Source: Solirubrobacteraceae bacterium (GTDB lineage: Bacteria > Actinomycetota > Thermoleophilia > Solirubrobacterales > Solirubrobacteraceae). From it: a stretch of 35,323 bases of DNA. The DNA lies in NCBI GenBank assembly GCA_025451035.1, contig JANWLE010000089.1, positions 1 to 35,323 of the forward strand, written 5' to 3'. Positions 32,728 through 35,323 of this stretch are shown in pieces. The notes under the pieces were generated by a model. That model was not told the DNA's origin and did not search any database. It saw only the letters and a program-made list of their open reading frames with translations. The position numbers and the translations under genes were made by a program. Numbering within the stretch: position 1 is the stretch's first letter; the number at the start of each line of letters is the position of its first letter.

Positions 32728-33477
32728 CTAGCTCCTCGGCCGCTTGAGTTGGTGCACGGTCGTATGACCGGAGGCGACGACTTCGATGGCGAGCGCGCGT
32801 TGGGCGGGCCACCAGGCGAGATACCAGCCTTTGCCGATGGTCGCCGACACCCGCTTTCCGTTGGCGAGCACGAACCGCACGGCGCTGACGACCGAGCCGA
32901 CGCGGCCCTCGGTATACGTGAACGGCTGTTCGTTCTCGGCCCGCGTGAAGCCAATCGAGAATGCGCCGATCTGGTCGGGCGACACTTTGATCGTTATGGC
33001 GCTCGGCGAAGAGCCGCTTACGCCCATCGTTGAGGGCGAGGGCCACGGTCCCACCAGGCAGTTGGAGTCAGTGTTCCCGTCAGTCACCAACACCATCGTG
33101 TAGGGGCCGCGCGTATCGGCGAGCAGCACACGCAGCGGCCCGGGCTTGGTAAGCGGTGGCAGTTGGGGTTGCTTACTCACCGTCGTCCTACACACGGCTT
33201 CGGCTGCCGGCGTTTGGCCGGATGCGGCCGCACTCGGCACGGGCACCCAGCCCGCGAAGGCGCGCTGGGTGCCTCCTCCGCCAAATCCGATGATCGAGAG
33301 CGATACCGCAGCTGCGGCGATCAAAGCGGCCAGCCCGGCGAGCCCCATCCCGACGCGGTGAAGGGGTGATCTCGGACGGTAGTCGGTGTCCTGCAGGCGC
33401 TCATACGCGTCTGGTGGTAGAGCTGTGGCGCGCTGCTCAAACGCTTCTCGGAGCTGTCTCTCGAGATGCTCGCTCAT
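32728..33477 (-). CDS. Single-pass anti-sigma-like protein (protein A) with a novel extracytoplasmic domain
   Basis: The 249-residue protein has a short cytoplasmic part (1-40, LREAFEQRATALPPDAYERL ... DYRPR), one membrane helix (about 43-64) and an external domain. The start overlaps the sigma factor stop by 4 nt (ATGA), the usual sigma/anti-sigma arrangement. The external domain (about 93-247) has Cys96 and Cys140, a VLLADTRGPYTMVL strand and a GWYLAWWP motif (217-224). Its paralogue is protein B at 34267. The cytoplasmic part lacks the zinc-binding HxxxCxxC motif of ZAS anti-sigmas. Anti-sigma function is inferred from position and topology. Confidence 0.75.
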   Translation of the reverse strand: MSEHLERQLREAFEQRATALPPDAYERLQDTDYRPRSPLHRVGMGLAGLAALIAAAAVSLSIIGFGGGGTQRAFAGWVPVPSAAASGQTPAAEAVCRTTVSKQPQLPPLTKPGPLRVLLADTRGPYTMVLVTDGNTDSNCLVGPWPSPSTMGVSGSSPSAITIKVSPDQIGAFSIGFTRAENEQPFTYTEGRVGSVVSAVRFVLANGKRVSATIGKGWYLAWWPAQRALAIEVVASGHTTVHQLKRPRS

Positions 33478-34064
33478 GAATCTTCGCTCCCGGTCTCACC
33501 CGCGAAACCTGACGGTGGGTCGTCTTGTCCGCGCTCCGCGGCGGGCGTGGCCATCGCTTCGCGCAAACGGTCGAGCGCGCGTGAGGCTGTGCTCTTGACA
33601 GTACCGACCGAACAGCCGAGCGCCTCCGCGGCCTGAGCCTCGGAGAGATCGGCGAAGTAACGCAGCACGAGCACGATCCGTTGACGTTGGGGTAGTGAGC
33701 CCAACGCCGCGAACAACTCGCTACGCGTCTCAAGCTCGGTGAACTGGCCCAGCGACCTTGTGTCTGGCAGCGGATCCAGTGACCGGCCTTGGGCGTCTTC
33801 GAGCTCGAGTCTGCGCCGGGCACGCCGCCGTGAGCCGTCCAGCGCAAGGTTGACCAGGATGCGGCGAGCGTACTCCTCTGGGCGGGCCATACGGCGTACC
33901 TTGGGCCAGCGCCGGGCGACGCGCAGCAGGCACTCTTGCACCAGGTCCTCCGCCTCGGCGAGATCCCAGGTAACGAGATAACCCGTTCGAAGCAGATGCT
34001 TTCCATGCCGTGCAACAAAGCGTTCGAACTCCGCTCGCGTCTGGCCGCTGCGCAGGAAATCCAC
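33474..34064 (-). CDS. ECF RNA polymerase sigma factor, SigE-family type
   Basis: The protein (196 residues from GTG 34064) has sigma region 2 (FERFVARHGKHLLRTGYLVT, then AEAEDLVQECLLRVARRW, PEEYARRILVNLALD) and region 4 (LPQRQRIVLVLRYFADLSEAQ, EALGCSVGTVKSTASRAL). This is the pattern of the actinobacterial SigE-family ECF group. The frame is open to ATG 34175, but codons there include TTA, TCT, AGT and AGA, unlike the rest, and GTG 34064 has GAAGAGGG upstream. The C-terminus is a short Gly/Asp/Ser-rich tail. It is translationally coupled to protein A. Its promoter and targets are not identifiable by eye; protein B upstream is a likely one. Confidence 0.93.
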   Translation of the reverse strand: MDFLRSGQTRAEFERFVARHGKHLLRTGYLVTWDLAEAEDLVQECLLRVARRWPKVRRMARPEEYARRILVNLALDGSRRRARRRLELEDAQGRSLDPLPDTRSLGQFTELETRSELFAALGSLPQRQRIVLVLRYFADLSEAQAAEALGCSVGTVKSTASRALDRLREAMATPAAERGQDDPPSGFAGETGSEDS

Positions 34065-34217
34065 TATCCCGCGCCCTCTTCGCTCTCGCTGTTCATCTGC
34101 ACCACTTAACCTGCTAGATGCTCCAGAAGGTTGCGTGGGCTCATGGTCGCCACCGCCCGTTGGGCCACGAGGCATACAAGGCGACCGGCTATCTGCTCAC
34201 TTCCGGTGATACGCGTA

Positions 34218-34249
34218 GCGCTCGGGGACCTCGGCATGTCCCCGAGCGC
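34218..34249. terminator. 12-bp hairpin between protein B and the sigma gene
   Basis: GCGCTCGGGGAC (34218-34229) and GTCCCCGAGCGC (34238-34249) are perfectly complementary with an 8-nt loop. It begins 18 nt after the protein B stop on the minus strand and lies about 150 nt before the sigma GTG. No T-run follows. It probably terminates or attenuates transcription, so that B could be expressed above sigma/A. Confidence 0.6.
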
Positions 34250-34266
34250 GACCGACTGGTTTAGCG

Positions 34267-34986
34267 CTATTTGCCGAGAACCGGATCGCGCAACCGCTGT
34301 GTGCTCGTGCCGCCAGCGGTGACGACTTCTGCCGCGACGACCGGCTGCAAGTCAGGCCAGAAGGCAAGGAACCAGCCTTCCGCGATGGCTGCCGAGACGT
34401 GCTTGCCGCTTTCAAGCACGAACCGGATAGCCGTGACGCCCGAGCCTACGCGGCCCGCGGCGTACATGAACGGCTTTTCGTCGTGGGCTCGCGAGAATCC
34501 GAACGAGAGGGCTCCGATCTGGTTGGCTGGGACATTGACCGTGAGCGCGCTCGGCGAATCCCCACCGATGCTCGACGGGCGGGGAGATTCCGGTCCCATC
34601 AGGCAATCCGAGTCGGTGCTGCCGTCCGTCAAGAACACCAGCGTGTAAGGGCCGCTCGTATCGGCAAGGACGACCTGCAGTTCCCCATGGGACGCGGCTG
34701 ACCGCCGCCCATGCGTATGGCGCTTCTTGCCCTTTTTGCGTGAGTGCTTACGCGAGGTACGGCCCTGAGCCTGGGTCCGTTGCAGCGGAAACAGCTGTTC
34801 GGCGGTTTCGTCAGACCTCGCTACTTCAATCCTGCAGATTTCTTCCGCCGCAGCCACCTGGTCGCTTGAGCCCAGCGCCGCTTGGGCGCCGCTGTCATAC
34901 GCGAGGATCCCCAGCGCAGTTGTGCTGACAGCCGCGACAGCGACAAACCAGCGCCGCGCCAGCCCCATCTTGGCCTGTCTGATCAT
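34267..34986 (-). CDS. Exported paralogue of the anti-sigma outer domain (protein B)
   Basis: The 239-residue protein starts MIRQAKMGLARRW, then a hydrophobic helix (about 12-30) ending near SGAQAALG. This is a signal peptide or anchor. The mature part matches protein A's outer domain. Conserved are Cys51 (EEICRIEV) and Cys128 (TDSDCLMGP), VVLADTSGPYTLVF, GRVGSGVTAIRFVL, and GWFLAFWP (204-211). Between the Cys-bearing segment and the first strand it adds a Lys/Arg/His-rich stretch (about 74-97, GRTSRKHSRKKGKKRHTHGR) absent from A. ATG 34986 has an excellent AAAAGGAGAG Shine-Dalgarno. Function unknown; it may compete with or feed the sensor A. Confidence 0.7.
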   Translation of the reverse strand: MIRQAKMGLARRWFVAVAAVSTTALGILAYDSGAQAALGSSDQVAAAEEICRIEVARSDETAEQLFPLQRTQAQGRTSRKHSRKKGKKRHTHGRRSAASHGELQVVLADTSGPYTLVFLTDGSTDSDCLMGPESPRPSSIGGDSPSALTVNVPANQIGALSFGFSRAHDEKPFMYAAGRVGSGVTAIRFVLESGKHVSAAIAEGWFLAFWPDLQPVVAAEVVTAGGTSTQRLRDPVLGK

Positions 34987-35323
34987 GACCTCTCTCCTTT
35001 TCGGTATGTGATGTGTCGTTGGTCGACCATGCAGGTCGCGACACGCTGCTGTCGCCGCGCTTGATCAAGCCCGCAAAACACACGACCGCGTGCTCTCGGC
35101 GGTCGCAAGCCGACTGCGATGAGGTAGCAGTGAACGGTTAGCTCAACTGCACCTGTCCTCCTGTTGGGGCTAGCCGCGAAGCGCTCACGCCCTGCCTGTG
35201 TTCGCGCGCTAGGTCGGCAGGCGCCATTCCCCGGGTCTTGTTTGAAATTGATCATGCCACTCCGTTAAACCCCCCTTGGATGCAGAAAGGTTGAGCGCCA
35301 CTAGCCCGCCGCCGACAGCCATC
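34987..35323. promoter_or_regulatory. Leader and upstream region of protein B; no convincing gene
   Basis: In 337 nt I see no coding frame with normal codon use. A small minus ORF at 35209-35322 is open to the window edge but reads poorly. Close to protein B, the palindrome TGGTCGACCA (35020-35029) lies within a larger dyad GTGTCG (35013-35018) / CGACAC (35039-35044). These would suit an operator or the promoter of the B gene. No TANNNT -10 box is spaced to the ATG, consistent with use of an alternative sigma factor. Confidence 0.4.

What the first reader, a model, noticed from the sequence alone, without database searches (positions are those of the whole stretch)
32728..34986. ECF sigma factor with a membrane sensor and an exported paralogue of the sensor's outer domain
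Protein A (anti-sigma-like, coupled to sigma by ATGA) and protein B (exported, next upstream) share an outer domain. In the block around the second Cys I count about 21 identical residues in 31, and the second half (GRVGS, the RFVL strand, GW-L-A-W/F-WP) aligns as well. Both keep two Cys, one at the domain start and one after TDS-N/D. This is not a standard RskA or ZAS system. B could be a ligand, decoy or partner that binds the same signal or competes at the sensor. Sequence shows the homology; the signalling role is inference.
Basis: partly seen in the sequence, partly recalled or inferred. Interest (0 to 1): 0.75.

Follow-up and report, generated by a model that had tools for sequence, protein, structure and literature searches.

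The report
Exported twin of a stress sensor
A soil-type bacterium carries a gene switch (a sigma factor), the membrane protein that probably holds it in check while sensing the outside, and a probably exported copy of that sensor's outer part; the switch and the copy each carry what looks like the switch's own promoter, which suggests a built-in feedback loop that has not been tested.

Summary
A (32728-33477) and B (34267-34986) share an outer domain (57% identity over 134 codons) with two conserved Cys; sigma is a SigE-type ECF coupled to A by ATGA. No curated family scanned describes the domain.

New here: (1) The domain is a sensor module found behind several ECF groups of Actinomycetota. 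The cytoplasmic N-terminus has a DYxPR-type motif in 17 of 17 proteins behind SigE-type sigma (16 with this outer domain) and 0 of 11 behind other ECFs, so it tracks sigma while the outer domain does not. (2) A two-block promoter (CAACCTTT-N15..17-TTA) precedes sigma in 16 of 16 SigE-type loci held (one weak). (3) The window has two copies, one before sigma (P2) and one upstream of B (P1): the two best sites in the window. In the whole genome the strict pattern occurs once (P1), a looser one four times (P1, P2, two others not at gene starts). B is therefore probably a sigma target. (4) A and B are sisters from a lineage-specific duplication; B is intact and conserved.

An adjacent A/B pair was seen in 1 of 16 loci. 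Another genome independently has exported-looking orphan copies; a third carries a tandem sensor duplicate wired to another ECF. B as feedback decoy or co-sensor is inference.

The parts
35266..35293 (-). P1, promoter of the SigE-type group: CAACCTTT-N17-TTA, about 280 nt upstream of B
   Evidence: Weight matrix from 12 relatives: 27.2, best site in window; strict pattern AACCTTT-N13..18-TTA occurs once in the whole genome, here, reversed control 3; 0 in 100 shuffles of the window
34983..35255 (-). 90-codon frame whose ATG lies 10 nt after the P1 -10 element (leaderless position); its stop overlaps the B start (ATGA). Same layout as the short coupled leaders before sigma, but longer; composition not gene-like
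   Evidence: no significant profile similarity to sigma
34267..34986 (-). B: paralogue of the sensor outer domain, probably exported: signal-peptide-like start (basic n-region, 18-residue hydrophobic core, AQA-A), basic linker, all-beta domain, no cytoplasmic DYxPR segment
   Evidence: AAGGAG ribosome-binding site before ATG
34215..34252 (.). GC-rich inverted repeat between B and P2 (12-bp stem, 8-nt loop, no T run); possible end of the B transcript
   Evidence: core found once in the genome; no canonical terminator found in the region
34107..34133 (-). P2, second copy of the promoter (CAACCTTC-N16-TTA) before sigma, inside the apparent N-terminal extension of the sigma ORF
   Evidence: Second best site in window, 22.2; in the earlier matrix 22.4 with the next unrelated site at 12.2
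34064..34096 (-). Short leaderless leader frame (ATG 10 nt after P2, 10 codons) whose TAG overlaps the GTG of sigma
   Evidence: four relatives (G023, L155, L157, L158) have the same layout with leaders of 9-14 codons
33474..34064 (-). SigE-type ECF sigma factor, probable start GTG 34064 (longest ORF to 34175)
   Evidence: TIGR02983 5.6e-47, above cut-off; Pfam sigma70 r2 and r4; start:
33364..33477 (-). A, residues 1-38: short cytoplasmic N-terminus with DYRPR motif, two predicted helices (3-19, 24-30), likely sigma-binding
33280..33354 (-). A, about residues 42-66: single transmembrane segment
   Evidence: hydropathy peak at 45-47; low model confidence there
32728..33276 (-). A, residues 68-249 and stop: outer domain, helix 88-102 with Cys96, then strands 116-243 with Cys140
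   Evidence: AlphaFold2 model, block means 73 to 97 from residue 71 on; family alignment

Best explanation
A is a single-pass membrane anti-sigma factor of a SigE-type ECF. Its roughly 40-residue cytoplasmic end holds sigma, and its all-beta outer domain with a conserved Cys pair senses an unknown envelope or extracellular cue. Released sigma activates its own promoter (P2: sigma and A) and a second copy of it (P1: B). B arose in this lineage by duplication of the membrane plus outer part of A, without the cytoplasmic end, under a second promoter copy, and is exported. It most likely works on the same cue or on A itself: made when sigma is active, it binds the ligand or the outer domain of A and damps or resets the signal (negative feedback by a soluble sensor copy). 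Shown: homology, promoter copies, sister relationship, conservation of B. Predicted: membrane layout, export. Inferred: sigma binding, sigma-dependence of P1 and P2, the feedback role.
For: A/B homology; sigma assignment; DYxPR-type N-terminus in 17 of 17 proteins behind SigE-type sigma and 0 of 11 behind other ECFs, although 16 of the 17 and all 11 share the outer domain. Promoter before sigma in 16 of 16 SigE-type loci: 13 by pattern, 3 by score only (G359 20.4, L160 16.3, G111 14.9); best site of its own locus in 12 of 12 leave-one-out tests. An in-frame sigma start 6-10 nt after the -10 element in 11 of the 16, and in the other 5, window included, an ATG 8-10 nt after it opening a 9-14 codon leader that overlaps an in-frame sigma start. 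No site before sigma in the other-ECF loci scanned (best score anywhere 13.6). Window: P1 27.2 and P2 22.2 are the two best sites, and B sits behind P1 with the same coupled-leader layout. B: sister of A with 95/94 support, shorter branch (0.35 vs 0.51); at 20 conserved columns B matches the family consensus at 17 and A at 16; dN/dS about 0.4; all-beta model.
Against: No adjacent outer-domain-only copy in the other 15 SigE-type loci as far as held. In G134 the orphan copies have no such promoter in the stretches held. No ligand, interaction or transcript data. B could stay membrane-anchored. A dN/dS of 0.4 between paralogues does not by itself prove constraint on B. Across 146 genomes the promoter pattern is no commoner than its reversed control (37 listed matches against 44, my count), so it is informative by position, not by presence. 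Most relatives are draft MAGs, and the contig ends 30 bases beyond P1.
Confidence: 0.45

Rival explanations
1. B is a co-sensor that A needs: the two outer domains pair (heterodimer or ligand hand-over), as RseB guards RseA (recalled) or as has been speculated for the CseA lipoprotein and CseC, rather than a competitor.
For: Shared fold prediction and apparent co-regulation; conserved Cys and aromatic core in both.
Against: The 15 other SigE-type loci show no adjacent copy as far as held; B is a lineage-specific addition.
Confidence: 0.2
2. B is simply the output: an exported binding or wall-associated protein that deals with the stress itself (for example captures the molecule that A senses) and does not act on A.
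For: Predicted sigma target; the segment between its two Cys has 18 K/R/H in 76 residues, the highest count of 26 members, which could bind anionic envelope polymers.
Against: Derived from the sensor itself and keeps the sensor's conserved residues rather than diverging.
Confidence: 0.22
3. B is a by-product of a tandem duplication with no lasting role.
For: Seen in one genome; the 280 nt between P1 and B hold only an un-gene-like 90-codon frame; a truncated outer-domain copy exists in G023.
Against: Intact 239-codon frame, ribosome-binding site, signal-like start, promoter copy, conserved residues, shorter branch than A.
Confidence: 0.13

Closest known systems
Membrane-anchored ECF/anti-sigma pairs (general kind; PMC8103513, passages)
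   Same: ECF gene, translationally coupled one-pass membrane partner with cytoplasmic N-terminus and outer domain, autoregulatory-looking promoter
   Different: Outer domain and short N-terminus match no Pfam or NCBIfam model scanned; an outer-domain paralogue with its own promoter copy lies next to it
Class II (CnrY-type) anti-sigma domains (PMC7406223, passages)
   Same: Short cytoplasmic segment (under 50 residues) with two predicted helices
   Different: No relationship to CnrY was tested; the CnrYXH system has a sensor CnrX that is not a CnrY paralogue (recalled)
Streptomyces coelicolor SigE-CseABC (PMC6767563, passages)
   Same: Sigma of the subfamily NCBIfam calls SigE-fam_strep (link of that name to S. 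coelicolor SigE recalled); an extracytoplasmic accessory lipoprotein (CseA) whose loss raises sigE expression
   Different: There: two-component system, no anti-sigma, sigE promoter not a SigE target, many listed targets with CGTC-type -10. Here: membrane partner, self-type promoter with TTA-type -10
CpxP (search listing and abstract start only, PMC4160245) and RseB (recalled)
   Same: Proposed logic: exported accessory protein that acts on the outer domain of an envelope sensor
   Different: As far as I recall neither is a paralogue of its sensor's outer domain; B is

Membership tests
Class I anti-sigma (RskA, ZAS) | Recognised RskA or zinc-finger (zf-HC2) domain | tested here: not met
   No Pfam or NCBIfam hit for A at E<=1
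Class I anti-sigma (RskA, ZAS) | Cytoplasmic domain of 50 residues or more (threshold used in PMC7406223), Hx3Cx2C if zinc type | tested here: not met
   About 40 residues before the TM; the only Cys are 96 and 140, both beyond the TM
ECF anti-sigma factor (any class) | Encoded with the ECF gene, one TM, cytoplasmic N-terminus | tested here: met
   ATGA overlap and hydropathy; sigma-sensor adjacency in 16 SigE-type loci
ECF anti-sigma factor (any class) | N-terminus specific to its sigma group | tested here: met
   17 of 17 vs 0 of 11
ECF anti-sigma factor (any class) | Binds and inhibits sigma | not testable with these tools
   needs interaction and reporter assays
Class II (CnrY-type) anti-sigma domain | Short domain of two helices wrapping sigma | tested here: inconclusive
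   Length and two helices in the model; binding mode and homology not shown
SigE-type sigma (TIGR02983) | Score above curated cut-off | tested here: met
   159.6 bits vs 141.55; the only match over the cut-off in the genome
S. coelicolor SigE-CseABC system | cseA, cseB, cseC downstream of sigE | tested here: not met
   Downstream are A, a protein with a Crp-type HTH and a CYTH-domain protein
Exported accessory regulator (CpxP/RseB-like logic) | Induced by the pathway | tested here: inconclusive
   Promoter copy P1 upstream of B; no expression data
Exported accessory regulator (CpxP/RseB-like logic) | Acts on the sensor outer domain | not testable with these tools
   needs interaction and deletion data

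The most novel reading that the evidence does not exclude
A bacterial soluble decoy receptor: sigma induces an exported copy of its own anti-sigma's sensor domain, which titrates the extracellular cue and makes the ECF response self-limiting, with sigma, its membrane partner and this decoy as the main targets of the promoter in this genome.
Probability: 0.3. Interest if true: 0.75.

Novelty: new variant of a known kind. Interest (0 to 1): 0.5.

Why it matters
It gives a SigE-type ECF group of little-studied actinobacteria a candidate anti-sigma, a candidate promoter motif with leaderless or coupled-leader starts, and a candidate sensor module that recombines between ECF groups. If B damps the signal, it would be a soluble-receptor style feedback in a bacterial ECF pathway, testable with a small reporter set-up.

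Tried and rejected
Sigma remnant between P1 and B: single pairwise scores against 10 sigmas in three frames ranged from 0 to 0.98 of shuffles; pooled tests gave 0.018, 0.021 and 0.075; the sigma profile gave -1.0 bits while at least 15 of 999 shuffles scored higher. Not claimed. Wider regulon: the loose pattern has 4 matches in the genome against 3 for the reversed control; besides P1 and P2 the other two are not at gene starts. The pattern with a near ATG gave, in 12 genomes, 9 sigma or B promoters and 5 other places against 3 for the control; three of the 5 are at ORF starts (glutaredoxin in G359, universal stress protein in G023, MTHFR in the own genome), the last with a low score. Across 146 family genomes the pattern occurs at about the rate of its reversed control. 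Known fold: no PDB match with E<=0.001 for A or B, only weak partial matches, mostly to beta-rich proteins; no PDB sequence match. Weak profile hits in order and class searches include unrelated membrane proteins and were dropped, 3 of 17 genomes had only weak hits (G015, G084, G129). Loci L174 and L175, without a detected sigma, were not resolved; the neighbour of L097 was not checked as a sigma. A Pfam scan of ten neighbouring genes in relatives showed no recurring gene.

Full report
Observation. Sigma is a SigE-type ECF (TIGR02983, 5.6e-47, above cut-off), the only match over that cut-off in the genome. A has a cytoplasmic stretch of about 40 residues, one hydrophobic segment and an outer domain; B has a signal-like N-terminus and the same outer domain. 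Identity over the outer domain is 57% in protein and 68% in DNA. Neither has a Pfam or NCBIfam match at E<=1; in a Pfam scan of 26 aligned family members only two weak family matches turned up, one member each, best 0.0015. AlphaFold2 models of A (pLDDT 79.6) and B (76.4) agree on a helix carrying the first Cys followed by 11-12 strands with the second Cys. Foldseek finds no PDB match at E<=0.001.

A modular ECF sensor. Profile searches found matches in 17 of 146 family genomes (3 only weak), 22 of 232 order genomes and 32 of 399 class genomes, many of the last two being weak hits. I hold 16 distinct loci with a SigE-type sigma plus this outer domain (window, G023, G024, G111, G118, G120, G122, G128, G134, G136, G138, G359, L155, L157, L158, L160). 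Of these sigmas four were checked against TIGR02983 itself; the rest were assigned by similarity to them. The DYxPR-type N-terminal motif is present in 17 of 17 proteins behind SigE-type sigma (these 16 plus G138 C10, which has another outer domain) and in 0 of 11 carriers of the outer domain behind other ECFs. The cytoplasmic end goes with the sigma and the outer domain moves between systems. That is the best evidence here, short of binding data, that A is the anti-sigma. Its length fits class II rather than class I domains, which were filtered at 50 residues in PMC7406223 (passages).

A shared promoter. Upstream sequences of the relatives show CAACCTTT, a spacer of 15-17, then TTA. Patterns find it before sigma in 13 of 16 loci; a weight matrix built from 12 relatives finds it in the other three (G359 20.4, L160 16.3, G111 14.9). 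Leave-one-out recovers the site as best of its locus in 12 of 12. In 11 of 16 loci an in-frame sigma start lies 6-10 nt after the -10 element, which suggests leaderless transcripts. In the other five (window, G023, L155, L157, L158) an ATG 8-10 nt after it opens a frame of 9-14 codons that ends overlapping an in-frame sigma start, a leaderless leader coupled to sigma. In the window and G359, and marginally in G111, the site lies inside the apparent start of the longest sigma ORF. Eleven distinct stretches where the outer domain sits behind another ECF (one, L097, not verified) have no such site before sigma, best score anywhere 13.6. Two more distant SigE-like loci (L071, L074) have it (19.8, 22.0). 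The motif was first seen by eye in these loci, so the independent tests are the window, left out of the matrix, and the leave-one-out runs.

Two copies in the window. With that matrix the two best sites of the window are P1 (35266-35293, 27.2), about 280 nt upstream of B, and P2 (34107-34133, 22.2), just before sigma; in an earlier matrix from 14 relatives they scored 26.5 and 22.4 and the next unrelated site 12.2. The strict pattern occurs once in the 2.87 Mb genome, at P1, against 3 for the reversed control; the looser one four times, P1, P2 and two places that are not gene starts, again against 3. The first 37 codons of the sigma ORF, which hold P2, are not gene-like (GC3 0.43 vs 0.71), so sigma probably starts at GTG 34064, coupled to a 10-codon leader. 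P1 repeats the layout: an ATG 10 nt after TTA opens a frame, here of 90 codons, that ends overlapping the ATG of B. A strong hairpin without a T run separates B from P2 (91 nt fold at -40.6 kcal/mol, z -2.65, 4 of 200 shuffles as good). I read this as two sigma-dependent units, P1-B and P2-sigma-A.

Origin and condition of B. In a tree of 20 outer domains A and B are sisters (95/94) and B has the shorter branch. At 20 strongly conserved family columns A and B agree at 15; B follows the family consensus at 17 and A at 16. dN/dS between them is about 0.4. B is an intact, conserved, lineage-specific duplicate without the cytoplasmic end. Two parallels exist: in G134 two copies without that end (L023, L037; export judged by eye) group with that genome's sigma-linked sensor (92/92), at other loci and without the promoter in the stretches held; in an Acidimicrobiales contig (L157) the sensor is duplicated in tandem (51% identity over 240 columns including the TM) but with another N-terminus behind another ECF. 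No other SigE-type locus showed an adjacent outer-domain-only copy; for 11 of the 15 the whole genome was searched, for L155, L157, L158 and L160 only the stretch held.

How it may work. Sigma, freed from A, raises sigma-A and B together. An exported copy of the sensor can bind the same cue or the sensor; the simplest consequence is damping. I rate this at 0.45 with co-sensor, output and relic as rivals. A possible hint on the cue: in G359 a strong copy of the promoter (20.9) precedes a glutaredoxin gene, and in G023 a weaker one (17.3) a universal stress protein gene. With the conserved Cys pair this would fit redox stress, but these are among 5 places beyond sigma and B in 12 genomes against 3 for the reversed control.

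Literature. In S. coelicolor, SigE works with CseABC, has no anti-sigma and does not drive its own promoter (PMC6767563, passages). The passages I read of PMC8103513 and PMC7406223 mention no soluble paralogue of an anti-sigma sensor, and the listings of searches show none by title or abstract start; the library lacks most subscription papers, so this is weak evidence of novelty.

Noticed in passing
L180:1501-1787 (G359:C79): Strong copy of the SigE-type promoter with a near ATG before a glutaredoxin gene: possible further target and redox hint.
   Followed up: partly
L157:3393-6469: Tandem sigma-sensor pairs of two different ECF groups whose sensors share TM and outer domain (51% identity) but have different cytoplasmic ends: an apparent sensor swap.
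   Followed up: partly
34064-34096, and G023, L155, L157, L158: A leaderless ATG after the promoter opens a 9-14 codon frame overlapping the sigma start in 5 of 16 loci: a recurrent coupled leader.
   Followed up: partly
L092:4839-6340: Orphan copy of the outer domain directly behind a rhomboid protease gene in G134.
   Followed up: no
L030:896-2232 (G138:C10): SigE-type sigma with the same cytoplasmic N-terminus type but a different outer domain.
   Followed up: no
L084:700-1180 (G023:C26): Truncated duplicate of the end of the outer domain (137 bp at 74% DNA identity to the G023 sensor gene).
   Followed up: partly
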